From Rhodanobacteraceae bacterium (GTDB taxonomy: Bacteria > Pseudomonadota > Gammaproteobacteria > Xanthomonadales > Rhodanobacteraceae): a stretch of 64,000 bases of DNA. Location: contig JAEUPP010000069.1 in NCBI GenBank assembly GCA_016790075.1, forward strand, positions 124,001 through 188,000, read 5' to 3'. The first letter of the stretch is position 1, and every line of letters begins with the position of its first letter. This document shows positions 5,074 to 52,418 of the stretch, in pieces. The notes under the pieces were generated by a model that worked only from the letters and a program-made list of their open reading frames with translations, was not told where the DNA came from and did not search any database. The position numbers were made by a program, and so were the translations under genes.

Positions 5074-5247
5074 ATGCCGGCATTGATGATGCGCGGCCCT
5101 ATGTCGCGCCCGGCTTCAGTCGCAGCAATGCGTTCGGCCAAGCACCGGCGGATTGTTGGCGAGGTCCCGCACGGTGGTGACGCCTACAGCAATGTCGAGC
5201 ACGCTGTCGGCCTGACCGAAGAAATGCGCGTGCATGTCCCAGAGACC
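5074..5247 (-). pseudogene. Truncated relic of the amidohydrolase gene found intact at 25804-27816
   Basis: On the minus strand this segment encodes GLWDMHAHFFGQADSVLDI and then VGVTTVRDLANNPPVL, almost identical to the metal-site region of the intact amidohydrolase. At DNA level 5074-5247 aligns with 26744-26915 at high identity. An extra base in the GGCCAAGCACCGG stretch (near 5139) shifts the frame. The fragment ends in three close copies of CAGAGACC. It stops abruptly on both sides, next to the IS66 remnant, so it is a duplicated and truncated piece. Confidence 0.8.
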
Positions 5248-5329
5248 CACCAGAGACCCCAGAGACCGCGGCCCCTCCTTCGCGATCACGGTGCGTAGCG
5301 GCCCCTGGTGCCTGCTCCGACGCCGCACT

Positions 5330-9500: not shown

Positions 9501-11417
9501 GAATTCGCGCGTGCTGCTCAATGTGGCCGTGACGGGGTCGTAGCTGTTGGATCGCATCACGGCGCCGCCGCCGGCTTCGGTCACGGTGCCTACCTGGCCG
9601 ATGACCCAGCGTGTGGTGTTGTGGTGGTACTGGGTGGTCTCGCTGCGCGAATGCCCCAGGCTGCTCGCCCGCGTGACGCTGGTGGGGTTGGTATAGCGGT
9701 CAAACGCGGTGACCGTGCGCGAGAACGTCACGTTGCGCTGTGTGATGACCCGGCTGCGCTGCGGAATCGGCACTTCACCGCTGCGGTCGCAGTAGTAGCA
9801 CGGCTTCTTGCCCCATTCGGCCGGATACGGCTGGCCCGCTGGATTGCGCTGGTAGTCGATGACGTCGCTTCTGAGGATTTCGGACTGTGGCGTGCTCACC
9901 TCGCTGGCCAGCAGCAGGCCTTCCTCGGCGTTGTAGCGGTTGCTGAATTGATAACGCGTCCAGGCGCCGTCCGGTTCGGTGACGGTCACGGTGCGGGTGG
10001 TGGGACACGGCGCACCGGTGCACTCCGACGTCCAGCTCGCATTCAGTGGGCCGTAGTCGAACGACCAGACCAGCGGTGCACTCAGGCCCGGCCCGGTGAT
10101 CTGCTTGCGCATCAGCGCTACCACATCGGCGAATTTCGATTCGTGCGGCGATGTGGCATCACCAACGGACATGCAGCTGAACGGCACATAGGAGCGGCCA
10201 TGGCGCACGGTGCGGAAGGTGAACTCGCCACGCGCCCCGGAAGGATGGGTAATCGTCTTGATCACCGAACCCGACGGCGGCGTATTGATATCGGCGCAGT
10301 TGCGCCAGCCCAGTGCGCCGCCACCGATGGTGGGGGCGAGGTCGAATTCCCAGAACGTGCTGTCGGGCAGAATCACGCGGCGCAGGCGATTGTCCGCGTC
10401 GTATTCGTAGGTCCAGGTGCGTGACGTGGTGCTGGCAGTGGCAATGCGTCCGGCCGGGTTATAGGTCAAATCGATGGAACGGCCGTCACTGGCGCGGATG
10501 GCCTGCAGACGCAGCGGGTTGGCCGGATCAAACGTGTAGGTCACCCAGTTGCCAAAGCGGTCTTCGATGCGCGTGGGGAAGATGTACTGTTCCTCGCGCT
10601 CCAGGTACGACACCCAGTTGTTGGGAAACACACCGCCGGCGGCACTGACCGGAGTGGCATAAACCTTGGCAAACCAGTCGAAGAAGTACTTCGTGCCCTC
10701 GGGCGACACTACGAGAAACCCTTCGCCGGGAACGCCATTGGCGGTTGACGGCAGACAGGCGGCCACCCAGTTATTGCCGGCTGCCCAGCGGTAGCTGCGT
10801 CCGTCCACCGGCCGGTTGGCATTGCCGGGTGCGATCACCATCAGGGTCTGGTCACCCTGGCCTGGGATATACAGGCTGTTGCCATGCCAGTACTCGTAAC
10901 TGGCGAACGACCAGTGGTTGCCGCTGCCCATCACGGACGGCGGCTGTCCCTGCGCCGGGTTGTTGGAATCCACCGAACAGCGCTGATTTGCCTGTCCCGG
11001 CGTGGATACCTGCCAGCCGGAGGCCGCATTGCCCTCGGTGCGGGCAAACGTGCCGTGCAGGTGCGGCAAGTCCAGTTCCCAGTCGATGAACAAGCCTGGC
11101 GAGCGGGCGCCCATGGGCGCGGTGCGGTAGTCCACGCGATAGCGGCGCGTGAGGTTAACCGGCAACGCCGAGTTGCCCGGCACACGGATGTCCGTAGTGA
11201 CGAACTCCGTCGCGCCCGTGCTCAACCCGGTGCTGTCGCCAAACAGCGACGGCCCCAATGCCGCCACGCCGTAGCGCTGGCGTATGAACTCATCGGAATA
11301 GTCTTGTGCCGGGGTGACGGCCCGCTCGGCCAGTTCCTCATCTGGCGTTGCGGCAATGGCAAAAAATGGCAGAACACTCAATGCCGTTGCGGCGAGCCAA
11401 CGCGATAGCTTGAACAC
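6585..11417 (-). CDS. Secreted Rhs/YD-repeat polymorphic toxin with ParB/Srx-like C-terminal tip
   Basis: About 1610 residues from GTG 11417; a TTG at 11438 in the same frame is the other candidate start. The N-terminus is a signal peptide (KLSRWLAATALSVLPFFAIA). Then come a beta-rich N-terminal domain and a long array of YD/RHS repeats (YDANQRL, YDTLNRLKT, YTPDGLL, YDPLDNLRR and others) forming a toxin-enclosing shell. The Rhs core ends with YMQARYYDPYAGRFMATDPV and NVDPDG at about residue 1430. A hydrophobic Gly/Ala stretch follows. The last ~80 residues read LVKRLASDMKKNGFD and IDGHHRTEAAKKAGIDEIPV, matching the ParB/sulfiredoxin-like fold (compare ParB GERRxRAA). The tip region is AT-rich relative to the core. 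Nuclease-type toxicity is inference. There are no VgrG or T6SS genes nearby; Sec export is indicated. Confidence 0.9.
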   Translation of the reverse strand: MFKLSRWLAATALSVLPFFAIAATPDEELAERAVTPAQDYSDEFIRQRYGVAALGPSLFGDSTGLSTGATEFVTTDIRVPGNSALPVNLTRRYRVDYRTAPMGARSPGLFIDWELDLPHLHGTFARTEGNAASGWQVSTPGQANQRCSVDSNNPAQGQPPSVMGSGNHWSFASYEYWHGNSLYIPGQGDQTLMVIAPGNANRPVDGRSYRWAAGNNWVAACLPSTANGVPGEGFLVVSPEGTKYFFDWFAKVYATPVSAAGGVFPNNWVSYLEREEQYIFPTRIEDRFGNWVTYTFDPANPLRLQAIRASDGRSIDLTYNPAGRIATASTTSRTWTYEYDADNRLRRVILPDSTFWEFDLAPTIGGGALGWRNCADINTPPSGSVIKTITHPSGARGEFTFRTVRHGRSYVPFSCMSVGDATSPHESKFADVVALMRKQITGPGLSAPLVWSFDYGPLNASWTSECTGAPCPTTRTVTVTEPDGAWTRYQFSNRYNAEEGLLLASEVSTPQSEILRSDVIDYQRNPAGQPYPAEWGKKPCYYCDRSGEVPIPQRSRVITQRNVTFSRTVTAFDRYTNPTSVTRASSLGHSRSETTQYHHNTTRWVIGQVGTVTEAGGGAVMRSNSYDPVTATLSSTREFGQPATTFTYHPDGTVWTQADGANQTTTFTNYRRGIAQNIALPDNNAQSAIVNDEGEITSVTNAAGYTTQYRYDLGGRLARIIHPSGDTPAWNDTTLTFVPITNTEYGIAANHWKQTVSTGNARTETYYDALWRPVLSRSYDTASLAGTQRMVLRRFDAQGRETFASYPKANIGSITDPVDGTTTQYDALGRITDVRAASELGTLTTSIRYRDGFQTEVSNPRRYVTTTTFQVFDEPSEAAPVTIQAPLGITTTIARDVFGKPTAITRSGLYNGVMNSATRSFVYDANQRLCKTIEPERGATVQDYDAANNRWWSASGQNLPSTAACDRGSVAASQKTVFGYDTLNRLKTTTFGDGSPPIDRTYTPDGLLETISADNSTWTTVYNRRRLMRSETLRLGTTDYPLSYTYTPNGHVASLSYPDGVAVAYAPNALGEATQVGNYASGITRHANGALANLSYGNGIAHTTQQNTRGLPSRSTDAGVLDDGYTYDENANVAVITDHLNGDFTRTMIYDGRDRLTSATNTARWDGAHTFVYDPLDNLRRSTTQKYGDWTHEYNAVTQRLDRIAFTGPGGASIITYGYDTRGRANARSTSGDAQTFTVDQADRVTGVTGVQSASYSYDGHGHRTRITKSGITTVQVYSQAGQLMYQSSPASNGIFRSGFQTSDTPYSASTGGNKRYVYLGRHLIAEDGTTGRRYIHTDALGSPINTSNSTGAVSARNDYKPYGWGPSPQSTPSFTGHVADAETGLIYMQARYYDPYAGRFMATDPVGASPDSFNRYWYANNNPYRNVDPDGRETASVTLRLPWNDSGGTLGEKLGAAVGLATLGVASISGGAFVATFAATTSSVGLTGAAIVHTPEIVTIGTIGAEATAAVSGVQGPTTVDLPAAGAAVPKLIRTNPKNLIPTQTKNEISGSLVKRLASDMKKNGFDQSKPIDAVRNERGRLEIIDGHHRTEAAKKAGIDEIPVNVWDR

Positions 11418-11976
11418 CGAATTCTCGTTAAGTGTCAATTACAAAGCCTGCATCGGTGGGTGACGATGGGGCATGTCCGACAAGTTTCCTGCCAACCGCC
11501 AGCCAAAGCGCTGCGCTTTGCTCCATACGCAGCCGTCAAATGCAACAGGCACACAAAAAACCGGCGCTGCGGGCAGAAGGATACTTCCACTTCCGCAAAG
11601 CTCGCCATGCGGACCGGCAGTACAGGCTTTTACACCCCGAACAACAATAGCCGCGGGCTCATCCCGGCGACGCGCACTGACTGTACTGGCACAGGATGTT
11701 CGGCATGGGCCTGGGCGAGGCTCAGTATCGGCAAATCCAACTCAGTTACGGCCTTGGCCGATGGTCAGGCATTGCCGCCAAGGATGATGCAACCCGCAGG
11801 CCGCCGCTATCCGTCGCGACGTGGTGCAGACTGCTCACCGGATACAGGTCTCAGCCAGATTGTTTTCCCGATCACACGATCGGCGTAGAGGCCACTGTCA
11901 ACCGATTCACATCCATTGCGTTGACTGCGCGCCGAGCTCGCACTACTGGAGTGCGGCCAATCATCAAGGAGTAGTT
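11418..11976. other. Gene-free stretch between the Rhs gene and the Notum-family gene
   Basis: No convincing coding frame on either strand. It should contain the divergent promoters of the two flanking secreted-protein genes, but no clear -35/-10 pair stands out. No repeat or RNA gene is recognised. Confidence 0.45.
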
Positions 11977-15395: not shown

Positions 15396-16922
15396 ATGAC
15401 CTTCGAGCAGCACGCTTTCATCAGCTATGCGCACATCGACAATCAGCCGCTGACACCGGATCAGAAAGGCTGGGTGACGCAGTTCCACGCGACCCTTGCA
15501 ACCATGCTGAGCCAGCGCCTCGGCGAGAAGGCGCGTATCTGGCGTGACGACAAACTTGACGGCAACGACGCATTCAGCGACGAGATCCTCGACCAATTCG
15601 CGAAAACGGCGATGCTGGTGTCGGTGCTGAGTCCGCGCTACCTGAAGTCGGACTGGTGCACGCGCGAACTGCGCGCTTTTCTCGACGCCGCGGCTGCGAC
15701 CGGCGGTGTGACCGTCAACAACAAGAGCCGGTTGTTCAAAGTTGTAAAGACGCCTGTCGACTCTGCTGCGTTGACGCTGCCGGAGGAAGCGCAGCGCACA
15801 CTCGGCTACGAATTCTTCGAACGTGCGGGCGACGACGGCGAACTGAAGGAACTCGACCCGGCGTTCGGCGAGCAGGCACGCCAGCAGTTCCTCGGCAAGC
15901 TGAGCAGTCTTGCGTGGCAGATGGCGAAGAGCCTGAAGTTGCTGGCCGAAGCGGCCGATGTGACGGCAGCCGCGGGCAAGACTGGCGCGACCATCCGCGA
16001 CGATGCAGGCAAGGGCGCCGTGTACATCGCCAGTTGCGGGCGCGATCTGCATGCGGTTCGCGAGCAACTCGCCACGGACTTGCGCAGGCACGGCTACGAG
16101 GTGCTGCCAGTGCAACAGTTGCCGGTGACAGCCGACGGGCTATCGCGCGAAGTACGCACGCTGCTCGAACGCGCGTCGCTGTCTATCCACTTGATCGGGC
16201 AAAGCGCGGGGCCGATCCCGGATGGGCCGGATGAGCGCTCCGCGGTAATGCTCGAAAACGATCTGGCCGCCGCCTGCAGCCGGGAGCGCGGACTACGCCG
16301 CGTGATCTGGCTGCCGGACGGCGTGCGCGGCGAACGCGACGAGCAGCAAGCCTTCATCGACGCCCTGCAGTCCGACGCCAGGCTGCAGTTCGGCGCAGAT
16401 TTGCTGCGCGGCGACGTCGAGGCGCTGAAACATGCGGCGCACGCCGCGCTGCAGCGCGTGTGCCGGGACGCCGCGACCAAGGTGCAGCCTGCCGACGATG
16501 GTGTGCAGGTCGTGCATCTGCAAATGAGCGAAGCCGACCGCACCGCAGCGGTCCCGCTGATCAAGATGCTGCGGGCACGCGGTGTGCGAGTGACGATCCC
16601 GGTGTTCGTAGGCGATGCGGCAGCGCTGCGCCAGGCGAACGCGCAACTGACCGCGGACTGCGACGTGCTGCTGCTGTTCTACGGCGACGGCGACGAAATG
16701 TGGAAGTTTCACCAGCAAAACGACTTGCGCAAGCAGGCCGCCACGCTGCAACGCGTCAGGCCGCGGCGCGACGTTCTGTTGCTCGCACCGCCACAGACGC
16801 CAGACAAAGCGCTGATTCAGGCACTCGCAGAAGCGAACACCATCGATGCCAGCAGCGGCTTTGACGACGCCACACTCGCGCCGCTGTGGGCTGTGCTCGC
16901 GCCAGGTGGAGGACTGCCATGA
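15396..16922 (+). CDS. TIR-domain protein with three TIR-like modules
   Basis: 508 residues from ATG 15396, preceded by GAGAGGA; an earlier ATG at 15369 is in frame but lacks such a site. Residues ~5-110 form a TIR domain: HAFISYAHIDN, RIWRDDKLDGNDAFSDEI, AMLVSVLSPRYLKSDWCTRE. E91 of WCTREL is at the position of the NADase glutamate. Residues ~210-310 form a second TIR-like domain (VYIASCGRDLHAVREQLATD to SIHLIGQSAG). A third at ~370-470 (VQVVHLQMSEADRTAAVPLI to DVLLLFYGDGDEMW) looks degenerate. The stop overlaps the next start as ATGA, so it is translated with the STAND NTPase. TIR enzymes commonly cleave NAD+ in defence systems; that activity is inferred from the first domain only. Confidence 0.85.
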   Translation: MTFEQHAFISYAHIDNQPLTPDQKGWVTQFHATLATMLSQRLGEKARIWRDDKLDGNDAFSDEILDQFAKTAMLVSVLSPRYLKSDWCTRELRAFLDAAAATGGVTVNNKSRLFKVVKTPVDSAALTLPEEAQRTLGYEFFERAGDDGELKELDPAFGEQARQQFLGKLSSLAWQMAKSLKLLAEAADVTAAAGKTGATIRDDAGKGAVYIASCGRDLHAVREQLATDLRRHGYEVLPVQQLPVTADGLSREVRTLLERASLSIHLIGQSAGPIPDGPDERSAVMLENDLAAACSRERGLRRVIWLPDGVRGERDEQQAFIDALQSDARLQFGADLLRGDVEALKHAAHAALQRVCRDAATKVQPADDGVQVVHLQMSEADRTAAVPLIKMLRARGVRVTIPVFVGDAAALRQANAQLTADCDVLLLFYGDGDEMWKFHQQNDLRKQAATLQRVRPRRDVLLLAPPQTPDKALIQALAEANTIDASSGFDDATLAPLWAVLAPGGGLP

Positions 16923-19444
16923 GCACGCCCGCGGGCATGCCCGCCAATCCGTTTCCGGGCCTGCGTCCATTCCGCGAAGACGAGGAGCACCTGTTCTTCG
17001 GCCGCGAAGCGCAGGTCGACACCATGATCGACCGCTTCGCCGATACACGCTTGCTGGCCGTAGTCGGTAGTTCCGGGTCCGGCAAGTCGTCGCTGGTCAA
17101 TTGCGGGTTGATACCCGCGTTGTATCGCGGCCTGCTGGCGAGCGCTGGCAGCGCCTGGCGCGTGGCAGTGCTGCGGCCCGGCAACCGTCCGATCGCGGCG
17201 CTCGCAGCCACCCTCGCTGCAGCGTTGGCTGACCCGTCCATGCCGTCAGCTGCTCCGGCGGACGCCTTAGCAAACGACGTACCGGGTGCCGCGGCAACCG
17301 CCAATGGTGGTGACGAGTCGTTCTTCACCCCCGCCGAGCTGACCGAAGCGACGCTGCGCATGAGCAAGCTCGGTGTGCTCGACGCGTACGAGATGGCGCA
17401 AACGCGGCAGAACTTGCTGCTGGTCGTCGATCAGTTCGAGGAACTGTTCCGTTACCGCGCATTGACCGATACCGCCGATGACGCGGCGCGCACCGCGGTC
17501 GCAGCGCGCGCGGACAGCGACCGCACCGCGTTCGTGAATTTGCTGCTCGAAGCCGCCGCGCAGCGGGAATTGCCGGTGTACGTGGTGCTGACCATGCGCT
17601 CTGACTTCCTCGGCGAGTGCGCACAGTTCTTCGGCCTGCCGGAAGCAGTCAGCCGCGGCCAATACCTGGTGCCGCGCATGACGCGCGACGAGCGGCGGGA
17701 CGCCATCTCCGGGCCGGCTGGTGTGGCCGGCGCTGGGATCGAGCCGGTGCTGCTGACGCGCCTGATCAACGATGTCGGTGACGACCCGGACCAGCTGTCG
17801 ATCTTGCAGCACGCATTGAACCGCACCTGGGCCGAGTGGCAGCGCGACGGTGCCTCCGGCCCGGTGGCCATGCGCCACTACGATCGCGTTGGCACCATGG
17901 CGAACGCCCTCGACACGCACGCCGACGATGCGTTCGCCTCGCTGGCGGATGATGCGCAACGCAGGCTCTGCGAAACGCTGTTTCGTGCAATCACGGACAA
18001 GGGCACCGATGCACGCGGCACGCGGCGACCGACCCGCGTCGACACATTGCTTGCGATCAGCGGCGCCACGCTTGCCGAACTGACAGCGATAGTCGAGGTG
18101 TTTCGCGAACCGTCGCGTTCATTCCTGATGCCGCCCGCTGGCCGCGCACTCGGCCCGGACACGCCCATCGACATCTCGCACGAGAGCTTGATGCGCGTAT
18201 GGCAACGCCTGCGCATGTGGGTCGACCTCGAAGCGCAATCCGCGCAGACCTACCGGCGCCTCGCTGAAACGACAGAGCTGCACACCGCGGGCAAAGCCGG
18301 CTTGCTGCGCCCTCCGGACTTGCAGTTCACGGCCGCCTGGCGTGAGCGCGAAAAACCGAACGAGACCTGGGCGGTGCGCTATCGCAGCGGCTTTGCGGAT
18401 GCGCTGAGGTTTCTCGAGCGCAGCGAACGCGCCTACCGCGAGGAACTGAGCAGCGAAGCGCGCGAACGTGCCGAGCAGGCAAAACAGATGGAGCAGCAAC
18501 GCCGCACGCACCGGTTGCTGGTGTGGGGCGTACCACTGGTTGCATTCCTGTCCTTTGCGGTGGGCACCGTGCTGTGGATGTATCTCGAAGCGGAGCGGCA
18601 GTCGCAGCGGGCTGAAATTGAGGCGGGCAAAGCACGCGCCAGTCAGGAGCGCGCCGAGAACGCGCTTGCCGCGGAGCGCCGCGCCAAAGATGCCCAGGAG
18701 ACCTACGAACGCGCGTACGAAGACGCGACCAGGAACACGCCGCAAGTGCGCGCAGCAGTGGCCAATGCTGTGCAGGAAAAGTCGCTGATCTATCTGCAGG
18801 TCGCCGATGCCAACCAGCGCAGCGCAGCCGAACGCCTGCGCGCGCAGTTGCAGGCAGCGGGCTATTTCGCGCCCGGTGTTGAGCAGGTGAAAGCAGCGCC
18901 AGCGGCGGCGGAATTGCGCTACTTCCGCGAGTCCGACGCCGCGGAGGCCTTGACCATCGTTCGCCAACTCGAACGCTGGGGACTCGGCAAGGTGCGTGCG
19001 CGCTTGATCGCTGGCTACGCAGCGGAGACCAAACTCAAGCAGTTCGAGCTTTGGCTGCCAGTCGAAAATGCAAGCTCGATCAGGGCGCTGGTAGCGCAAC
19101 TGGACGACGGCTCCGTGGATACGCGCAAAGCCGCCGGGCAAGCTTTGCAAGACCGTTACACAGCTTCGCCGCGTGCCATTGAAGAGGTGCTCGAAATGCT
19201 GGAGTCGCAGCCTGGCCCGTCGGTTAGCGGCCGCATCAACGCGCTGTATTTCCTGTCGCGCACCGCGCCGCTCGCCTGGGACGACAAACTCGCCACGCGC
19301 GGGCGCTTCCTGATAGCGGGGGCGCGGAAAGGCGGCGATCTGGGCCCGCAGGCGAAGGCCGAATTGATGCGCCTGGAGAGCGTGCTGGACGCTGTGCACG
19401 CCAGGTCGGCAGAGCCCGTCGGCGAGTTCAGCAAACCCGAGTGA
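16919..19444 (+). CDS. Membrane-anchored STAND-type NTPase
   Basis: 841 residues; the start overlaps the upstream TIR gene (ATGA) with GGAGGA seven bases before it. Residues 10-30 carry NPFPGLRPFREDEEHLFFGR, the hallmark of the nSTAND1/NACHT-like family. Walker A is GSSGSGKSS at ~50-58 and Walker B is LLLVVDQFEELFRY with D171. A winged-helix-like region follows (ILQHALNRTWAEW, ISHESLMRVW). A single transmembrane helix lies at ~530-553 (LLVWGVPLVAFLSFAVGTVL), then a charged coiled coil, then an alpha/beta domain (SAAERLRAQLQAAGYF) and a C-terminal helical repeat region. STAND proteins are signal-sensing switches; here it would sense a trigger and license the TIR partner. That coupling is inference from the operon. 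Confidence 0.9.
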   Translation: MSTPAGMPANPFPGLRPFREDEEHLFFGREAQVDTMIDRFADTRLLAVVGSSGSGKSSLVNCGLIPALYRGLLASAGSAWRVAVLRPGNRPIAALAATLAAALADPSMPSAAPADALANDVPGAAATANGGDESFFTPAELTEATLRMSKLGVLDAYEMAQTRQNLLLVVDQFEELFRYRALTDTADDAARTAVAARADSDRTAFVNLLLEAAAQRELPVYVVLTMRSDFLGECAQFFGLPEAVSRGQYLVPRMTRDERRDAISGPAGVAGAGIEPVLLTRLINDVGDDPDQLSILQHALNRTWAEWQRDGASGPVAMRHYDRVGTMANALDTHADDAFASLADDAQRRLCETLFRAITDKGTDARGTRRPTRVDTLLAISGATLAELTAIVEVFREPSRSFLMPPAGRALGPDTPIDISHESLMRVWQRLRMWVDLEAQSAQTYRRLAETTELHTAGKAGLLRPPDLQFTAAWREREKPNETWAVRYRSGFADALRFLERSERAYREELSSEARERAEQAKQMEQQRRTHRLLVWGVPLVAFLSFAVGTVLWMYLEAERQSQRAEIEAGKARASQERAENALAAERRAKDAQETYERAYEDATRNTPQVRAAVANAVQEKSLIYLQVADANQRSAAERLRAQLQAAGYFAPGVEQVKAAPAAAELRYFRESDAAEALTIVRQLERWGLGKVRARLIAGYAAETKLKQFELWLPVENASSIRALVAQLDDGSVDTRKAAGQALQDRYTASPRAIEEVLEMLESQPGPSVSGRINALYFLSRTAPLAWDDKLATRGRFLIAGARKGGDLGPQAKAELMRLESVLDAVHARSAEPVGEFSKPE

Positions 19445-19724
19445 GTGCCCAAAGCTCCAGTTGGCGTAGCGCGGCAGTTACTCGGGCCAGTACTGGCGCT
19501 TAACTCCAGACGGACAGCCCTTGGGACTTGACCCACGGTTGAGGCGTGTTCGGATCAACCTGGGAGTTCCCCGGTAACCGCAGTGAGCGATCGGCATAGC
19601 TGGTTCGTGCAAAGAACTCGTGGAACGCCCGAAGTGTGCGCCCTGCGCATGATCTCGTTCCCGCGTCTATCACCACGCGCATAGTTGGACGTTGCACGAA
19701 CAGCGGACCAGCCCGTCCACCGCC

Positions 19725-21383
19725 TCAGCTGCGCAACCTGCGCCGGATAGCGCTCATCGACACCCCCTCGTTGGCTTCATAAGTTCCCTCGCCATTGAGC
19801 CGCGGCGCTTCTGCCAACCCCGCGTGATGCAGGGCCATGACTTCCCAATCCGCATTGAACACAGGACTGCCCGAACTGCCGGGATCCGTGGGTGTCCGGT
19901 AGTGCACAAGGCGCTCCTGGTCGTCAATGTCCAGCAGCAAGCTGTCGTGAAGGGCGATCTGCAGGCCCGCGCCGCGCGGATGTCCGGCGACGAACGCCCT
20001 GGCCTTAGGACCAAGAAGGGGAAGATCGCGTGTGGCTTGTAGCACCGGCGCATCGCCCGGTAGGTCTCGGAGGCGGACGATTGTGCAATCGAGCATCTTC
20101 AACTCGTCGTTGCGTGCGCCGACCGGGCCGGGTTCCGACGTGAACAGAACTTCGCTCACGGCGTAGCGCGTCAGGTTGCCGGCAACCGGCGTATCGAGCT
20201 CGAACGTCACGCGGGCTTTGCCTGTGGGGATGGCATTGGTGACCGTATCGCTGATCACGTGCGCGTTGGTGAGAAACACCGGACCAGCGCCATACACGGG
20301 CTTGAGCCAGGCGCCACTGAGCAAGAACCCGGTGCCCAGGCGTTCTCCGATGTCGTTCATGACGCAGCCCACCGACCTGAAGGCCGACAGCAGTGATCGG
20401 ATCGAGTCCACGCTGAAGCTCGACTCGCCTAGGAAGTTTTTCTCCAGGCCTCGTTCGTCGTTCGCGAGCGCCGCCTGGATCGCCGGTACTTGCGAAGGAA
20501 CCAACGTGATGCGCGCCTGCCGTTGGGCGCAGAAGTTGGCAATGATGCTCAGCAGGCGACCGGCGCAGACCACCGGCGACGTTGGATCCCCGCGCCAGAT
20601 CTCACGCAGCTGCCGCGAGTAGCTGTCCAACTGGAATCTCGTGGTGTCCTTCGACGACAACATCCGATACAGCCATAGCTCCGCGTCGTCGCAACGTCCC
20701 AAGGCCAGGCAGGCCTCGGAAGCAGTGGCGTAGGCCCAGGGGTCCGGTTTCGAGCGACAGCTTTCGACGACAGTCTCGAGGATCTTCCTGGCGAGATCAT
20801 TGAAGTCGGGCAACGCCGGTCGCGGGATTCCGCCGCTCTGATGGAGCTCGAGATTGAGGCAGGCCAGCGCATTGATGCCATGCCAGTAGCTTTCAGGGGC
20901 ACTGAGGTACTGGGCCAAATAGCGGTTGGTGGCGTCGACCAGGCTGTCAAGGTCATCGGTGTTATTTACGTAACGCTGTTTGGCGATCCGCCCCAACAGA
21001 CCACGGAACTCTAGCAACTCCCGACGGTAGACAATATCGCCTGGGTGTTTCTCGCACACAGCGATAGCCTCGGTCGCCATGCTCTGCGCTTCGTCCAGCA
21101 GCGTCGTGTTGATCAGCGCCTGTACACGCCGCTTCTGCAGCACAGGATCGAAGCCCTTGCGCCCGTACCACGCCTTGGCAATGGCACGGGTCAGCTCGAA
21201 GTAGCAATTGTCGTTAAGTCGGGCGGCGGCATTGCGAGCCTGTTGGACACCGAGCGCGACAGCGCCCTGCTGGATCTCATCGACGATGAGCTGCGCACCT
21301 TTGGCCAGCAGCCAGTCACTGACGACCGGAAACCGGCCAGCCTTCAGATCGTGCGCTACCGCCTGTGCCGTGGTGGGTGTCAT
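19725..21383 (-). CDS. TPR-like (TPR-S/DUF4071-type) plus trypsin-like serine protease
   Basis: 552 residues. The N-terminal ~250 residues are helical, TPR-like, with GRIAKQRYVNN, YWHGINALACLNLE and AYATASEACLALGRCDDAEL, resembling the domain linked to MAP3K TRAF-binding regions in bacterial conflict proteins. Residues ~340-550 are a trypsin-like protease: GTGFLL, LTNAHVIS (His ~375), KMLDCTIVRL (Asp ~432), TDPGSSGSPVF (Ser ~503) and EVMALHHAG. No signal peptide, so it is cytoplasmic. It starts three bases after the stop of the alpha/beta hydrolase gene (TGA-AGC-ATG), so the two are co-transcribed. Proteases of this type are proposed effectors activated by an upstream sensor; the target here is unknown. 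Confidence 0.85.
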   Translation of the reverse strand: MTPTTAQAVAHDLKAGRFPVVSDWLLAKGAQLIVDEIQQGAVALGVQQARNAAARLNDNCYFELTRAIAKAWYGRKGFDPVLQKRRVQALINTTLLDEAQSMATEAIAVCEKHPGDIVYRRELLEFRGLLGRIAKQRYVNNTDDLDSLVDATNRYLAQYLSAPESYWHGINALACLNLELHQSGGIPRPALPDFNDLARKILETVVESCRSKPDPWAYATASEACLALGRCDDAELWLYRMLSSKDTTRFQLDSYSRQLREIWRGDPTSPVVCAGRLLSIIANFCAQRQARITLVPSQVPAIQAALANDERGLEKNFLGESSFSVDSIRSLLSAFRSVGCVMNDIGERLGTGFLLSGAWLKPVYGAGPVFLTNAHVISDTVTNAIPTGKARVTFELDTPVAGNLTRYAVSEVLFTSEPGPVGARNDELKMLDCTIVRLRDLPGDAPVLQATRDLPLLGPKARAFVAGHPRGAGLQIALHDSLLLDIDDQERLVHYRTPTDPGSSGSPVFNADWEVMALHHAGLAEAPRLNGEGTYEANEGVSMSAIRRRLRS

Positions 21384-21386
21384 GCT

Positions 21387-22382
21387 TCAGAGGTCTAGCG
21401 CTTCCGTGAGCTTCGCCCGGAACTGGAGCCCCGCAAAGTAGTGCGTGATCGTGTGTCGCCACTTGCTCCAGTTCGACTCCTTAATGTCCTCGACGCTCTT
21501 GCCGTCGACCGGCTCAAAGTCGTTGGCGAATTTTGGGTCGGCGCCACAGATGGGATCCAGCGGGTCGTAGATGTTGATCCAGCGTGAAGTAGTGGCTGCC
21601 GGGAAGTCGTTCTTCTGCAGTCCTGGAGCGCGCAACTCGACCTGTACTTCCTTGATGCCTAGCGGCGAACCCAACGTGATCAGGGTTTCCACTTTTGGAC
21701 AATCCGCGCAATTGCGCAGCACATCATAGGCGACCATGGTGCCCATGCTGTGCGAGACCACCACGAGTTTCTCGCCTTTCTCCGCTGCGGCCTTGAGCTT
21801 GTCGACCAGGCGCCTGCGCAGTTCGGATCGCACCTGGAAGTTGACGCCATCCTTGCGCGTGTACTCTTTGTCGAAGAGGAAGTAGTACGCCTCCATGGCT
21901 GCTTTCTTGATGATGGCCTCGCGCCAGGCTGCGGGCAGCAGTCCGGCGATTTCCGCTCCCGCGAGCGCCGCCGGGTTGATCCCCGGGGCTACTGGCGGCT
22001 CGGTGATCAGCTGGGAACTGAGCTCCGCCTCGAACCTTGCCAGGAATGCCTGCTCCTCGGGGGTTACGGGAATGGGCGCTACTGGTGCCGGCTCATCGAG
22101 CTTGTCGGCCAGGATCTCGGCATCAGCACCGCGGCCCTCCGCTTCGAAGTACGAGGAGAAGTCGGTCTCGTAGTCGTCCGCGTAAAAGACGTCGGCGTAA
22201 TAGTTGAGCTCGTGTGGCACGCCCTTGGTATAGAGATTGATGCCCTTGTTGGGCGGGGCGAACACGTCAGGACGCGGGTTGTCACGGCTGATTCCCATGA
22301 GCCACAGCTCAAGCAGCTTGTCGGGAGGTGGCTTCTTCGCCAGGCCATGCACAAATACGACCGCGCTGCGTCTCTTTGGCAT
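21387..22382 (-). CDS. Alpha/beta hydrolase (lipase-like), first gene of the protease operon
   Basis: 331 residues from ATG 22382, which has GGAGG six bases upstream; a 10-residue longer in-frame start at 22412 lacks it. The fold is shown by SAVVFVHGLAKK near the N-terminus (oxyanion HG), the nucleophile elbow KLVVVSHSMGTMVAYD (Ser ~210), INIYDPLDPICG (likely acid) and WRHTITHYF (likely His). No signal peptide. A central insertion (~100-150) is Pro/Ala rich. Immediately followed by the TPR/trypsin gene and divergent from the TIR-like genes. In bacterial conflict loci such hydrolases are thought to act on lipids or other esters as effectors; the substrate is unknown. Confidence 0.85.
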   Translation of the reverse strand: MPKRRSAVVFVHGLAKKPPPDKLLELWLMGISRDNPRPDVFAPPNKGINLYTKGVPHELNYYADVFYADDYETDFSSYFEAEGRGADAEILADKLDEPAPVAPIPVTPEEQAFLARFEAELSSQLITEPPVAPGINPAALAGAEIAGLLPAAWREAIIKKAAMEAYYFLFDKEYTRKDGVNFQVRSELRRRLVDKLKAAAEKGEKLVVVSHSMGTMVAYDVLRNCADCPKVETLITLGSPLGIKEVQVELRAPGLQKNDFPAATTSRWINIYDPLDPICGADPKFANDFEPVDGKSVEDIKESNWSKWRHTITHYFAGLQFRAKLTEALDL

Positions 22383-22574
22383 GACAACCTCCAGTTTGTC
22401 AATTGTTTGCAATCAAGACATCGTTGAAACACGGATCGTTTTTTATCACAACAAGACCGGAGAGAAACTGCGGGCGGCGTCGAACCACCCCGGTCATTTG
22501 AGCAATGATGTACTTTTTGCATCGCAACATACATTGCGGCGCACCGGTGAGTGGCCTCGTGTATGCTCTGGCGA
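22383..22574. promoter_or_regulatory. Shared divergent promoter region of the conflict locus
   Basis: 192 bases, clearly more AT-rich than the surroundings, between the divergent hydrolase and TIR-like genes. It contains several poly-A/T runs (GTTTTTTATCAC near 22438, ACTTTTTGC near 22512) and a 5-bp inverted repeat CGCAA-cataca-TTGCG at 22523-22538. Individual -35/-10 elements could not be assigned with confidence. Common control of both arms is inferred from the geometry. Confidence 0.4.
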
Positions 22575-23939
22575 ATGGCCAGTCCGCTGTGTTTCGTGCT
22601 CATGCCTTTCGGTGACAAGCCCGACCCCCTGGGTGGCCCACCGATCAACTTTGATCGCGTCTACGAAACGGGAATTCGCCCCGCCATAGAGCAAGCAGGC
22701 CTCGACCCGATCCGCGCGGACGAGGAGCGGACCGGCGGGATTATCCACAAGGCCATGTTCGAGCGATTGCTGCTATGTGAATTCGCTGTCGCCGATCTGA
22801 CCTGCGCCAACGCAAACGTTTTCTACGAGCTTGGCGTGCGCCATGCCGTACGGCCTTCGACCACGGTGGTGATCTTCGGCAAGGGGCACATGCCGCCGTT
22901 CGATGTGAACTACGTGCGGGGCATGCCCTACGACCTGGGAGCGGGCAACGCCTTCACCAACGCGGTGGCGCAGGGCGTGCGTGATGCGCTGGCACAGCGA
23001 TTGACCGAAATGCGTGAGCTGGCCGTGGGTACCGCAGTCACCGACAGCCCGCTGTTCCAGTTGCTGAGCGACTACGCCCCCCCCGACATAGCAAGGCTCA
23101 AGACCGACACGTTCCGCGATCGCATCCAGTACGCGGCCAGCGCCAAAGTCGCGTTGGCCGCAGCCCGGGAGAAGCGGGATACAGACGAACTCGCACGCGT
23201 CGAACGGAGTCTCGGCGCGCTGGACGGCGTGGAGGCCGGCGTTCTTGTCGACCTCTATCTATCGTATCGGGCTGTCTCCGCCTGGCAGCGAATGGTCGAC
23301 CTGTATGCACGCATGCCCAAGTCTCTGCAATCCGTGGTGCTGGTGCGCGAGCAACTAGGCTTTGCTCTCAACCGCCTGGCACATCGCCCGGACGCGTTAC
23401 GCGTGCTCGGCGAGGTCGAGGCACAGCACGGCGCGAGCTCGGAGACCTGCGGCCTCATCGGCCGTGTATACAAAGACCTTTGGGGAGATGCGAAGAATGC
23501 AGGCGACGAGGCATTGGCACTGGACAACCTGAGCAAGGCCATCGAGGCGTACTCGCGTGGCTTCGAGGCGGATTCGCGTGACGCATTTCCGGGTATCAAT
23601 GCGGTAACGCTGCTCGACATCCGGGGAACAAGCGCCGCTCAGGAGAAGAAGGCGGAGCTGCTGCCAGTGGTGCGATTCGCGGTGCTGAAGCGAGTGCGTT
23701 CAGGCAAGTCGGACTACTGGGATCGCGCTACGCTGCTCGAACTTGCCGTACTTGAACGCGACGCAGACGCCGCCTGCGAACACCTGGCTGACGCCCGCGC
23801 CAACATGCGGGAGGCCTGGGAAGGCGAAACCACGGCCAATAACCTGATGCTGATCCGCGAGGCGCGCCAGACGCGTGGCGAGCACGAACCCTGGTTGGAT
23901 GACATCATCCGCGCGCTTGATCCCAAGCGGCTCATCTGA
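22575..23939 (+). CDS. TIR-like (nucleotide-fold) domain plus TPR-S/DUF4071-like domain protein
   Basis: 454 residues from ATG 22575; in-frame ATG 22563 and GTG 22551 are alternatives and no start has a strong ribosome site. Residues 1-130 read CFVLMPFGDKPD, FDRVYETGIRPAIEQAGLDP, IRADEERTGGIIHKAMFERL and FAVADLTCANANVFYELGVR, a widespread TIR-like/nucleoside-hydrolase-like domain. Residues ~230-440 match the DUF4071/TRAF-binding-associated TPR domain: CGLIGRVYKDLWGDAKN, YSRGFEADSRDAFPGINAVT and YWDRATLLELAVL. It is soluble. The stop lies seven bases before the next gene. In comparative studies of conflict systems this TPR type is a constant link between nucleotide-generating enzymes and effectors. 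The role here is inferred. Confidence 0.85.
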   Translation: MASPLCFVLMPFGDKPDPLGGPPINFDRVYETGIRPAIEQAGLDPIRADEERTGGIIHKAMFERLLLCEFAVADLTCANANVFYELGVRHAVRPSTTVVIFGKGHMPPFDVNYVRGMPYDLGAGNAFTNAVAQGVRDALAQRLTEMRELAVGTAVTDSPLFQLLSDYAPPDIARLKTDTFRDRIQYAASAKVALAAAREKRDTDELARVERSLGALDGVEAGVLVDLYLSYRAVSAWQRMVDLYARMPKSLQSVVLVREQLGFALNRLAHRPDALRVLGEVEAQHGASSETCGLIGRVYKDLWGDAKNAGDEALALDNLSKAIEAYSRGFEADSRDAFPGINAVTLLDIRGTSAAQEKKAELLPVVRFAVLKRVRSGKSDYWDRATLLELAVLERDADAACEHLADARANMREAWEGETTANNLMLIREARQTRGEHEPWLDDIIRALDPKRLI

Positions 23940-23946
23940 GGCACGC

Positions 23947-25398
23947 ATGACTTTGCCGACGTTCAAGGTCTTCCTGAGTCACCGCTACAGGTCGCCCGAC
24001 GTCAACCGCTTTTTCTTCGAGTTGTTCGCGCGACAGGCTCTGTTGCAGTTCGAGGTCGACGATGGCGTGACGTATCTGCCAAAGAGCGCCGGCGGCGCCG
24101 TGCAGGGCATTCCCACCAACGTGACACGGCTCGAACGCATTGTGCGCGCCGCGGATGCGTTCATCGGCATCTATCCGATCTCCGTGAACGCGACCGATTC
24201 GCCGAATCCGGATCAACTGAAACTGGAGTCGCGCTACTTCCGCCTCGAGCTCGATCTGGCGCTGCGCGCCCGCAAGCCAGCGCTTGTGTTCTTCGACCAA
24301 CGCTACAAGGCGCAACTGGCTTGCCCCTCTGGCGTGTTGTCGCACAGCTTCGACGCGCAGGAGGCCGTACCAGGCCAGCAGACGCCTAGTTCCGCGGCGT
24401 TCGACAAGGTATTCGCAGACTTCTGCACGCGCGTCAGCGCCTCGATGTCCTACCGTACGCTGAGCAGCGCGTCCGCTCGCAGCGGACGCGTCGGCGTCCT
24501 CTTGCCGCAAGCCGAGAGTCCCGGCGGATATACCGACGAACATATCCGCTCGATCGAGGAGGCGCTGAGCGACAGCGACTACATGCCGGTGCGGATGCGC
24601 TGGCCGCCCGTGCTGGGCCGTGAACTGCTGACGGAATGCGCGGAGCTCGATTTCCTCGTGGTGGACGTCGGTGATGATCCGATTTCCGCCGCCACGGTGT
24701 CGTTCCTGCATGGTCGCTTCATTCCGGCGCTGAGGCTGCGACGCCTGGACGCAGACGCGCCTCAAGTCTCGCAGCTCGAACACATCCTGTTTGGCTCGGT
24801 GACCGCCGGCTATCTCAAGGACGTGGTCCGCTGGTCGAGGAAGGAAGAACTCGACGCCGGCATCCGCGCTCGCATCCAGGTGATCGACCTGCCGCCCAGA
24901 CGCATCTCCACGGCCGCGCAGGCCAACGAGTACTTCGTACGCAGCAGCAAGCGACCGGTAAACATCTTCCTCAGCTACTGCGGCCGCGACAGCAACGTCG
25001 CCGCCCGCATCAGCGAGTCATTGGTAAAGCGGTTCCAGAAGGTATTCAACTACAAGGACGGCACGTCGATCGAGCCCGGCAGCCCATGGCTGGCGCAGAT
25101 TTTCGATCAACTGGCGACATCCTCGGTGGCGATCCCGCTGATATCGGATGACTACTTCAAGAGTGGCAATTGCGAGCACGAAGCGCGCGAAATTATCGCG
25201 CGACGCGACAACCAGAGCTTGCATGTCATTCCCGTAAAACTGAAACCCCAGGTGACCGTTCCCAACTGGTTCGCCGACATTCAAAGCGAGCGGCTGTTCG
25301 CCACCAACCAGGATGCCGAGGCACTGGCCGAGTCCATCGTTGCGCTGGTCGACAAGCGTCGCACGGAGGCCGCGCCCACCGCCGGCATTTCGACCTGA
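23947..25398 (+). CDS. TIR-domain protein with an N-terminal TIR-like/nucleotide-fold module
   Basis: 483 residues from ATG 23947 with GAGG five bases upstream. The N-terminal module (~1-130) reads FKVFLSHRYRSPDVNRFFFE, RLERIVRAADAFIGIYPI and RKPALVFFDQRYK. A middle alpha/beta domain (~180-290) reads GRVGVLLPQAE, HIRSIEEALSDSDYMPVRMR and LDFLVVDVGDD. A C-terminal TIR domain (~335-475) reads VNIFLSYCGRDSNVAARISE, VFNYKDGTSIEPGSPWLAQI and SDDYFKSGNCEHEAREII, where the Glu of CEHE sits at the NADase glutamate position. It forms an operon with the upstream TIR-like/TPR gene. NAD+ cleavage or cyclic-ADP-ribose-type signalling is the family expectation, not shown here. Confidence 0.85.
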   Translation: MTLPTFKVFLSHRYRSPDVNRFFFELFARQALLQFEVDDGVTYLPKSAGGAVQGIPTNVTRLERIVRAADAFIGIYPISVNATDSPNPDQLKLESRYFRLELDLALRARKPALVFFDQRYKAQLACPSGVLSHSFDAQEAVPGQQTPSSAAFDKVFADFCTRVSASMSYRTLSSASARSGRVGVLLPQAESPGGYTDEHIRSIEEALSDSDYMPVRMRWPPVLGRELLTECAELDFLVVDVGDDPISAATVSFLHGRFIPALRLRRLDADAPQVSQLEHILFGSVTAGYLKDVVRWSRKEELDAGIRARIQVIDLPPRRISTAAQANEYFVRSSKRPVNIFLSYCGRDSNVAARISESLVKRFQKVFNYKDGTSIEPGSPWLAQIFDQLATSSVAIPLISDDYFKSGNCEHEAREIIARRDNQSLHVIPVKLKPQVTVPNWFADIQSERLFATNQDAEALAESIVALVDKRRTEAAPTAGIST

Positions 25399-25803: not shown

Positions 25804-27816
25804 TTACGGTGCGGGCGTAATGCCGATGGCGCTGAACAGCTTGGCGCTGTCATAGCGGCGGTCGCCGCGGATCACTGTGCGCACCTTGCGGATGTCCGCC
25901 ATGTTCAGGGTCGGGTCGCCGTCGACCAGGATCAGGTCGGCGACGTAACCGGGCGCCAAGCGGCCGTATTCCTTGTCGCGCTTCATGACCAACGCCGAAT
26001 CGTAGGTCGCCGTGCGCAGCGCGTCCTTGGGCGAAATGCCGGCAGCGACATAGAGCTCAAGCTCGCGCGGAATCTGCAGACCGCCGGAACCGTCGGTGCC
26101 AGCAACGATGCGCACGCCGCTGCGATGCAGCAGGCCTACGAAATCGATCATGCGCTGATAGCCGTCGCGATAGGCCGCTTCCTGGCCAGGTTTGATCGGC
26201 AGGCCGCCGCCGCCGGAACGGATGCCACGCTGCCAGGTCAGCGGCAGGCGCGTCATGATCGCGGCAAAACCCGGGCCGGGCAGGCCGGGCCGGCCCAGGA
26301 ACATGTCCTCGAACGTGCTCAGGGTTGGATCGATCACGATGTTGCGCTGCTTGAGCAGGGTCACAAAGTCGCGTACCGCCGGCGTGCCCAGATCAATACC
26401 CGCGCCGTACTCGCCGATAGCGGTGAAGCGCGCCGGTGTGCGCGTGTCCTGCACCTTGTCGTAAAGGAAGTTCAGCATCAGCATGTTGGCATGCTGTATC
26501 TCTTCGGCGCCGTTCTCGACGAACTGGCGCGCGGTCATGTAGGCGGGCACATGACCGCTGACGCGCAAGCCCTTTGCATGCGCCATGCGCGCGATCACCG
26601 GCATCAGCTCGGGCTTTATGGAACTGTAAATTTTAATTTGTTCATGACCGCTCGCGGCGTATTCGTCGACGATGCGTTGGGCATCGGCTTCATTGTCGGC
26701 CAGCGCCTTGGTCGGCCCGGCAAACGGCCCCGGGCCATCGATGATGCCGGCCTTGATGATGCGCGGTCCTATATCGCGCCCGGCTTCAATCGCTGCAATG
26801 CGCTCGGCCAGCACCGGCGGATTGTTGGCGAGGTCGCGTACTGTCGTAACACCTCCGGCGATGTCGAGCACACCGTCGGCCTGGCCGAAGAAATGCGCGT
26901 GCATGTCCCAGAGACCGGGCATCAGGAACTTGCCACCACCATCGAGTATTTCTGCATCGGCCGGTGTAGCCACCTCCGCCGCTTTGCCGCTCGCCGCGAT
27001 ACGGCCCTTGTCGACCAGCACGGCGGCGTCCTCCAGCACGACGCCCGTAGCGGGATCGAAGGCACGTACATTGCGAATCAGCAGTGGACGCTTGAGTGTT
27101 TCGGTCAGCGCCTTGGCACGCTGCTGCGCCTGCTGTTGCTGCTGCGCGTCCTGGGTCTTGCCCAACAGCGGCAGCACATCGGCATAACCTTCGCGGATCA
27201 GCGACGACCAGCTCGAATAATCCGCAAAAAAGCGCTGCTGCTCATCAAGCCAAAGATAGCCTGGCGTCAGATCAAGACCGTGAATCGCATACAGCGCGAC
27301 CTTCTTCTTGCCGGGCTTGCCCTTGACCTGCAGCTCGGTGAGTTTCTCAATACGCGCTTCGCCGGCCGGCAATATGGCCAGCCTCTGCTGCGGCGATTTG
27401 AGCAGGGCGCGAGCCAGCAGCACGCTTTCTTCGGGTGTGCCGTTGAGGCTCAGGTAGAACGCCGGCTGCTCGACACTACGCGTTTCGCTTTCCGATGCGT
27501 TCTTCCAGCTGACGCTATTCCCTTCACGGGTCAGCGTCTCGTCGACCGGGCCCTTGAAGTAGTCATTGCCCTTGTTCGTGGCCGCGCTCACCAGACCGTC
27601 GGCGGCGACATGGTATTCGGAATCAAGCTTGGGGCCACGACCCCGGTCGTTGAATTCGTAGTGCACACGAATGCTGCCGTCGTCGGCATAGCGCGCCTCG
27701 TGAAAACCCGCCTTGGCACCCATGGTTATGACGTCACTGCGTTCGACCTGTTCGGCCGCCGCGACGGCTGCACCGATGCCAAACAGCAGTGCGCCCAGCA
27801 AGAATCTGAGTCTCAT
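25804..27816 (-). CDS. Secreted amidohydrolase-family protein
   Basis: 670 residues from ATG 27816, which is preceded by GGGAGGA four bases away; the longer open frame upstream is not needed. A signal peptide (RLRFLLGALLFGIGAAVAAA) is followed by an extra ~250-residue N-terminal domain. The amidohydrolase barrel starts with LIRNVRAFDPATGVVLEDAA. Metal-site motifs are visible: GLWDMHAHFFGQ (HxH), a central GHVPAYMTARQFVENGAEE, then AGTDGSGG (catalytic Asp) and LAPGYVADLILVDGDP at the end. This is the imidazolonepropionase/prolidase-like subgroup often exported in this lineage; the substrate is unknown. A truncated copy of its HxH region lies at 5074-5247. It is not obviously in an operon. Confidence 0.88.
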   Translation of the reverse strand: MRLRFLLGALLFGIGAAVAAAEQVERSDVITMGAKAGFHEARYADDGSIRVHYEFNDRGRGPKLDSEYHVAADGLVSAATNKGNDYFKGPVDETLTREGNSVSWKNASESETRSVEQPAFYLSLNGTPEESVLLARALLKSPQQRLAILPAGEARIEKLTELQVKGKPGKKKVALYAIHGLDLTPGYLWLDEQQRFFADYSSWSSLIREGYADVLPLLGKTQDAQQQQQAQQRAKALTETLKRPLLIRNVRAFDPATGVVLEDAAVLVDKGRIAASGKAAEVATPADAEILDGGGKFLMPGLWDMHAHFFGQADGVLDIAGGVTTVRDLANNPPVLAERIAAIEAGRDIGPRIIKAGIIDGPGPFAGPTKALADNEADAQRIVDEYAASGHEQIKIYSSIKPELMPVIARMAHAKGLRVSGHVPAYMTARQFVENGAEEIQHANMLMLNFLYDKVQDTRTPARFTAIGEYGAGIDLGTPAVRDFVTLLKQRNIVIDPTLSTFEDMFLGRPGLPGPGFAAIMTRLPLTWQRGIRSGGGGLPIKPGQEAAYRDGYQRMIDFVGLLHRSGVRIVAGTDGSGGLQIPRELELYVAAGISPKDALRTATYDSALVMKRDKEYGRLAPGYVADLILVDGDPTLNMADIRKVRTVIRGDRRYDSAKLFSAIGITPAP

Positions 27817-27944
27817 CGCATCCTCCCGGTCAATTCCTTCAGTCTGAACCGGACAATCCTGCGCCAGCGCGTGCCGTAAGCTGGGTGGCCATGCGCCAGA
27901 AGGGCCGCCAGTTGCGGCGAACTGCGGCAAGCGGGTGGCATGCC

Positions 27945-52205: not shown

Positions 52206-52418
52206 GGTCCATTCCCTCGCCTGCACCGCCGCCGGCAGCCTACACCGGAAATGGCGAATTTGCAGCGAACGGATCAATGTGAACGAGCGTGCGCGGCGCG
52301 GAACGCGCACACTGCAAGGCGACACTGCTGAGAGAAAACGCGCCCACACACCACAAGGAAACCATGTGAACACGTGGTTGGCGCAAATTTTCCTGTTTAC
52401 ATCATTACGGAGGTCAGC

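What the first reader, a model, noticed from the sequence alone, without database searches (positions are those of the whole stretch)
15396..25398. Possible uncharacterised conflict (defence) island of TIR, STAND NTPase, TPR-like, protease and hydrolase genes
Six genes in 10 kb have the architecture of nucleotide-linked bacterial conflict systems. There is a triple TIR-like protein with a membrane STAND NTPase (overlapping ATGA), and a divergent block with an alpha/beta hydrolase, a TPR-like/trypsin protease, a TIR-like/TPR-like protein and a further TIR protein. A related TPR-like domain is visible in both arms of the divergent block, and three genes carry TIR or TIR-like modules. Whether the two sets are one system or neighbours is unknown. 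Domains are seen in sequence; co-function is inference.
Basis: partly seen in the sequence, partly recalled or inferred. Interest (0 to 1): 0.85.

Follow-up and report, generated by a model that had tools for sequence, protein, structure and literature searches.

The report
ASK1-like bacterial defence gene cluster
Next to each other in a bacterial genome lie two predicted anti-virus gene modules, one of which joins a bacterial cousin of the human stress sensor ASK1 to a protease and a lipase-like enzyme that may be switched on in a chain; the parts are of known kinds, the protease-lipase pairing may be new.

Summary
The six genes and their domains are real. They are best read as two modules side by side. 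Module 1 (15396-19444) is a TIR/DRHyd-like/TIR protein plus an nSTAND1 NTPase; the pair occurs without TPR-S genes in view elsewhere. Module 2 (19725-25398) is a TPR-S conflict locus: E is DRHyd-TPR-S, the bacterial counterpart of the N-terminal half of human ASK1; C is TPR-S-trypsin; D is a lipase-fold hydrolase; F is a TIR protein. A second strong TPR-S gene lies within 12 kb of E's homologue in 19 of 50 genomes (about 0.2 copies expected). D followed directly by C is a conserved, portable pair, although C's TPR-S falls below the Pfam cut-off on three plasmids. TPR-S systems were described before (Burroughs and Aravind 2020, recalled, not held). Possibly new: D-C looks like a lipase counterpart of the proven protease-activated proenzyme nucleases; D has its triad and a longer segment before the nucleophile than unpaired relatives. 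That step is inference. The six genes were found together in no other locus examined; F is not conserved; links between the modules recur but are not obligate.

The parts
15396..16922 (+). Gene A: TIR (15396-15956), DRHyd-like (about 16005-16481), TIR-like (about 16503-16907); TIR W-C-x-x-E motif invariant in 10 aligned sequences
16919..19444 (+). Gene B: nSTAND1 NTPase with one hydrophobic segment near residue 534 (mean hydropathy 2.14, candidate membrane span) and a SPOR-like match below cut-off
19725..21383 (-). Gene C: TPR-S (20856-21149) and trypsin-like protease (19830-20336); H375, D432, S504 (triad assigned by motif) invariant in 8 aligned sequences
21387..22382 (-). Gene D: alpha/beta hydrolase, lipase fold; S212, D276, H310 (triad assigned by motif) invariant in 8 aligned sequences; long segment around residues 76-148 (about 21939-22157)
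22413..22574 (.). Divergent stretch between D and E; no sigma-70-like promoter or terminator match found
22575..23939 (+). Gene E: DRHyd-like domain with the ELG glutamate (22575 to about 22949) and ASK1-type TPR-S region (Pfam TPR-S at 23283-23615)
23947..25398 (+). Gene F: C-terminal TIR domain (about 24964-25326, with C-E-H-E); N-terminal 330 residues without homologues in the searches made

Best explanation
Two predicted anti-phage (suicide-type) modules sit next to each other in a strain-specific region. In the TPR-S module, E (DRHyd-TPR-S) and F (TIR) act on NAD+ or a related nucleotide when infection is sensed. The product, or contact through E's own TPR-S, is read by the TPR-S domain of C and frees C's trypsin domain. 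C then cuts the long segment next to the active site of its partner D, turning a silent lipase into an active one that damages the cell's own membrane and stops the infection. A-B is a separate TIR-STAND module in which B senses the invader, probably at the membrane, oligomerises and switches on the TIR of A; it may feed the same messenger to C. Shown: domains, conserved catalytic-type residues, gene pairings, recurrence of TPR-S pairs, the longer segment in D. Inferred: defence role, messenger, cleavage of D, lipid target.
For: Domains. E relates to human ASK1 over part of the DRHyd domain plus TPR-S and keeps the ELG glutamate in 46 of 46 aligned sequences, where ASK1 has HLG. A second strong TPR-S copy lies within 12 kb of E's homologue in 19 of 50 genomes, 19 of 37 second copies, 0.21 expected from genome size. 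Of 67 immediate neighbours of E homologues scanned (of 94 listed), 12 carry TPR-S, 6 patatin, 6 TIR_2. Individual neighbours are alpha/beta-hydrolase-TPR-S, patatin-TPR-S and trypsin-TPR-S over cut-off, and CHAT with a TPR-S match just under cut-off. D then C in that order: L019, L058 and six of seven plasmid records with D. Triad residues invariant in 8 of 8. D's model is nearest to lysosomal phospholipase A2, DDHD, LCAT and, by Foldseek, bacterial lipases. From the HG loop to the nucleophile are 184-200 residues in the 7 aligned D with C beside them, 146-173 in 13 relatives without such a neighbour. Precedent: a trypsin-like protease activates an upstream proenzyme nuclease by cutting active-site insertions (PMC12799240, passages).
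Against: No experiment. No held defence-system model names these proteins: PADLOC gives only part matches (best 3.1e-7, TIR effector on E), NCBIfam none over cut-off. F is not conserved. On three Rhizobium/Agrobacterium plasmids the protease beside D has no TPR-S over the Pfam cut-off (none listed for L128 and L129, 27.1 of 27.6 bits for L132), so the sensor part of the pair is variable or diverged, and on two of these (Agrobacterium) no E homologue is annotated in the stretch. D's low-confidence segments come from a 5-row alignment and may only reflect that. One D homologue (L130) has no such protease directly beside it and a segment of 165, within the unpaired range. Clustering with other conflict genes is also expected of any defence island.
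Confidence: 0.48

Rival explanations
1. All six genes form one cascade: the STAND protein B and TIR protein A sense infection and make the messenger that C reads, with E and F as amplifiers.
For: In Chlorobiaceae L101, A and B homologues, an alpha/beta-hydrolase-TPR-S gene and E follow each other on one strand, the last two gaps being 86 and 64 bases. In Sinorhizobium L131, D and C are followed after 239 bases by a TIR-nSTAND1 fusion. In Hymenobacter L161 a distant A match (28%, 9.1e-11) with nSTAND1 lies near E. 2 of 9 counted A copies and 6 of 71 nSTAND1 genes in 50 E-bearing genomes lie within 12 kb of E, against 0.03 and 0.30 expected.
Against: 8 of 9 visible A-B pairs have no TPR-S in view, although some contigs are short. 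In the window A-B points towards C-D and shares no operon with it. Defence islands cluster unrelated systems, which the expected numbers ignore.
Confidence: 0.22
2. C and D are independent effectors rather than protease and proenzyme: C cuts host or phage proteins, D cuts lipids, both merely co-regulated.
For: Alpha/beta-hydrolase is found fused to TPR-S without trypsin (L036, L078, L101), and TPR-S-trypsin without D (L042), so each can stand alone.
Against: D itself carries no TPR-S match, directly precedes the protease in 9 of 10 cases examined or checked by coordinates (window, L019, L058, six of seven plasmid records), and has a longer segment beside the active site than unpaired relatives.
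Confidence: 0.3
3. TPR-S is a homotypic docking domain, not a nucleotide sensor: E recruits C through TPR-S to TPR-S contact.
For: Paired TPR-S genes in one locus would also fit the adaptor logic of effector-associated domains described in PMC8195603 (passages).
Against: TPR-S-trypsin with D on the Sinorhizobium plasmid L131 without an E homologue in the stretch; the family was proposed as a sensor of NAD+-derived signals (Burroughs and Aravind 2020, recalled).
Confidence: 0.25
4. A stress-response or regulated-death locus not aimed at phages, like ASK1 in animals.
For: E is the bacterial match of ASK1's sensor half.
Against: Patchy, partly plasmid-borne, strain-specific distribution with other conflict genes.
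Confidence: 0.15

Closest known systems
TPR-S (PF20308) nucleotide-linked immune systems (Burroughs and Aravind 2020, J Bacteriol; recalled, paper not held)
   Same: DRHyd-TPR-S protein beside a TPR-S-linked effector
   Different: Here the TPR-S protease is paired with a separate lipase-fold gene in front of it; I could not check whether that paper shows this pair
Gated nuclease-protease pairs of Hachiman, AVAST, Lamassu and DRT systems (PMC12799240; passages read)
   Same: Enzyme gene directly upstream of a trypsin fused to another defence domain; extra segment near the active site
   Different: D is an alpha/beta-hydrolase (lipase fold), not a metallo-beta-lactamase nuclease; the fused part is TPR-S
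Caspase with alpha/beta-hydrolase in VMAP ternary systems (PMC7159879; passages read)
   Same: Protease and alpha/beta-hydrolase genes kept together
   Different: Trypsin in place of caspase; no MoxR or vWA among the six genes
Human ASK1 (MAP3K5; 5ulm, 8qgy)
   Same: DRHyd-like plus TPR region, 1.7e-19 by profile
   Different: No kinase in E; E keeps ELG where ASK1 has HLG
TIR-nSTAND1 proteins (nSTAND1 named in PMC8195603; passage read)
   Same: TIR effector with nSTAND1
   Different: Split into two genes, with a TIR/DRHyd-like/TIR protein

Membership tests
TPR-S conflict system | TPR-S domain over curated cut-off | tested here: met
   C 37.9 and E 83.3 bits against 27.6
TPR-S conflict system | Signal-generating DRHyd/TIR gene beside a TPR-S effector gene | tested here: met
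TPR-S conflict system | TPR-S binds an NAD+-derived messenger | not testable with these tools
   needs biochemistry
ASK1 (MAP3K5) family | DRHyd-like plus TPR sensor half | tested here: met
ASK1 (MAP3K5) family | Protein kinase domain | tested here: not met
   no kinase match in E
Gated nuclease-protease pair | Enzyme gene directly upstream of a trypsin fused to a defence protein | tested here: met
Gated nuclease-protease pair | Metallo-beta-lactamase nuclease | tested here: not met
   D is an alpha/beta-hydrolase
Gated nuclease-protease pair | Disordered insertions that block the active site | tested here: inconclusive
   longer segment than unpaired relatives; pLDDT under 50 at 76-93 and 127-148 with a 5-row alignment; blocking not examined
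Thoeris | SIR2 or SLOG partner (ThsA) | tested here: not met
   no such domain in the six proteins; F matches a ThsB model only in its TIR
AVAST (Avs) | Avs model match with STAND and C-terminal TPR | tested here: not met
   no Avs match for B; nSTAND1, no TPR
CBASS | CD-NTase | tested here: not met
   no CD-NTase among the six proteins; E and F have part matches to TIR effector models
MoxR-vWA ternary systems | MoxR and vWA genes | tested here: not met
   none among the six proteins

The most novel reading that the evidence does not exclude
D-C is a portable protease-lipase proenzyme pair: a lipid-cutting counterpart of the gated nuclease-protease pairs, here put under an ASK1-type TPR-S sensor, with E as a catalytically competent bacterial form of the ASK1 sensor half, which in humans has lost its glutamate.
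Probability: 0.3. Interest if true: 0.75.

Novelty: new variant of a known kind. Interest (0 to 1): 0.5.

Why it matters
[quoted passage not shown] D-C shows protease linkage clearly and the insertion in part, with a lipase-fold enzyme. E also gives a small bacterial system in which the nucleotide-sensing idea for the ASK1 sensor half can be tested directly.

Tried and rejected
One six-gene system: not found as six in the loci examined; kept only as a rival. A known named defence system: only part or weak matches. F as a conserved part: and no hit for its N-terminal part among the ORFs. D homologues in viral contigs: none by the close-relative search. E in phages: 15 records, the listed ones covering at most 34% of E at its N-terminal end. 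Papers: 10 full-text searches listed no paper whose title or shown abstract describes a TPR-S-trypsin/lipase pair; the library lacks most subscription journals and Burroughs and Aravind 2020 is not held, so this proves little. Of the papers I saw passages only (PMC7159879, PMC8195603, PMC9503650, PMC12799240). Promoters between D and E: none by consensus. F's fold was not predicted (two jobs only, used for A and D). D profile against PDB sequences: no match. In one search most rows cover A's first domain; the other two domains rest on fewer rows, the third on one.

Dropped before counts: 27 of the 94 neighbours (mostly short) were not put into, chosen by eye; duplicate loci L059, L026 and L100 were left out; neighbours were limited to 150-1100 residues. 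50 of the 80 loci were handles, chosen by me; the 30 left out were chiefly on short contigs. The 87 strong TPR-S rows are those down to E 1.4e-10. Five short A matches (and second pieces of two others) were not counted among the 9 copies. One search scored at most 30 candidates per genome, so nSTAND1 counts are lower bounds. Of the D matches, L124 and L125 gave no recognised D reading frame in my ORF list and are not among the 13 unpaired. L130 and L112 are in the 9-row set although the protease is absent beside the first and beyond the contig end for the second; the range 184-200 is for the other 7, three of which have a protease without TPR-S over cut-off. Unpaired D were checked only about 1.5 kb to each side; L115 lies near a DegP-like frame on the other strand. 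Clustering probabilities assume genes placed at random and genomes independent, so they overstate.

Full report
Observation. A (15396-16922) has a TIR domain; B (16919-19444) is nSTAND1; C (19725-21383, minus) is TPR-S plus trypsin; D (21387-22382, minus) is an alpha/beta hydrolase; E (22575-23939) is a MAP3K_TRAF_bd/TPR-S protein; F (23947-25398) ends in a TIR domain. C and E hold the only two TPR-S matches in the held 5.6 Mb genome. The A-B overlap and the 3-base gap between D and C were read directly.

E and ASK1. E alone matches human ASK1 (5ulm, 3.3e-6). A profile of 46 sequences reaches 1.7e-19 against 8qgy and extends into the DRHyd-like domain (profile positions 68-398). In that alignment the profile's FYELGVRHA region reads FYHLGVRES in ASK1. 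E85 is invariant in the 46 sequences. PMC8195603 states that components of the ASK signalosome come from bacterial conflict systems (passage), so the link as such is known.

TPR-S pairs. E homologues are widespread: 232 relatives among 291 candidate stretches in genome contigs, the best 80 kept, in records named after many phyla. In 50 of their genomes, TPR-S matches of E 1.4e-10 or better number 87; of 37 second copies 19 lie within 12 kb of the best one, in 19 genomes, against 0.21 expected, and 18 lie elsewhere. Partners seen near E homologues are TPR-S fused to alpha/beta hydrolase (L036, L078, L101), to patatin (L022, L081) and to trypsin (L019, L042, L058), and a CHAT protein with a TPR-S match of 24.5 bits, under the cut-off of 27.6 (L078). 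12 of 67 scanned immediate neighbours carry TPR-S and 6 carry TIR_2 at E 0.001.

The D-C pair. In L019 (the same contig as L059) and L058 D is followed directly by C, with E in the same 20 kb; L042 has C and E without D and with further proteases beside C. Among plasmids, 7 records hold D; in four of the five that I opened the protease follows directly, and in two more the coordinates show the same. In the fifth, a Sinorhizobium meliloti plasmid, D lies among genes annotated as endonuclease, PAS, CHAT, S8 peptidase and trypsin. Against a strict TPR-S rule: Pfam finds TPR-S over cut-off in the C of L019, L058, L042 and L131, none in L128 and L129, and 27.1 of 27.6 bits in L132. So enzyme plus trypsin is the constant core and the part in front of the trypsin varies or has diverged. 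On the two Agrobacterium plasmids D-C stands with no E homologue annotated in the stretch. Triad residues are invariant in 8 of 8 aligned C and 8 of 8 aligned D sequences.

One system or two. Of 10 loci with a strong A homologue, 9 show B next to it (in two the B reading frame is short or split) and in the tenth the contig ends; 9 of the 10 have no TPR-S gene in view (contigs of 8 to 9.5 kb in three cases). Against independence: L101 carries A, B, an alpha/beta-hydrolase-TPR-S and E in a row on one strand; L131 carries D, C and a TIR-nSTAND1 fusion in a row; L161 has a distant A match with nSTAND1 near E. In 50 E-bearing genomes 2 of 9 counted A copies and 6 of 71 nSTAND1 genes lie within 12 kb of E. 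I read this as two modules that often travel together; probability of one obligate system about 0.2.

Setting. From 25.8 kb rightwards, to between 32 and 39 kb, the window is syntenic in pieces of 71-89% identity with five congeners; apart from a 175-base fragment that belongs to the same amidohydrolase gene, no piece over 150 bases to the left matched in the stretches fetched there. E had no match in any of the 7 congeners searched. The block is therefore in a variable, strain-specific region.

Verdict. The domains and pairings are shown; defence, messenger, cleavage and lipid target are inference. The kind of system is known; the D-C arrangement is, as far as I could search, an undescribed variant. 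On checking, the TPR-S result led me to lower the best explanation from 0.50 to 0.48 and the novel case from 0.33 to 0.30.

Noticed in passing
window 5074-5248 and 26744-26916: A 175-base fragment about 90% identical to part of the amidohydrolase gene at 25804-27930, in the same orientation and about 21.7 kb away, so the variable region lies between a gene fragment and the intact gene.
   Followed up: partly
window 6585-11438: 1617-aa protein with RHS repeats in the same variable region, possibly a polymorphic toxin-type gene.
   Followed up: no
window 48444-52373: 1309-aa open reading frame with no Pfam match at E 0.001.
   Followed up: no
L134 (E. coli IncP plasmid pKMi029_2): An E homologue followed by two TIR genes and a DUF4231 gene on a conjugative plasmid.
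   Followed up: no
L130 (Sinorhizobium meliloti plasmid): D homologue in a row with genes annotated as DNA/RNA non-specific endonuclease, PAS, CHAT, S8 peptidase and trypsin-like.
   Followed up: partly
phage records H60-H74: DRHyd-like domains related to E's N-terminus in 15 phage records, 13 named as Streptococcus phages.
   Followed up: no
L042 505-8113: Two trypsin-like genes (one TPR-S-linked) and a TPR-CHAT gene near an E homologue in Solibacteraceae.
   Followed up: no
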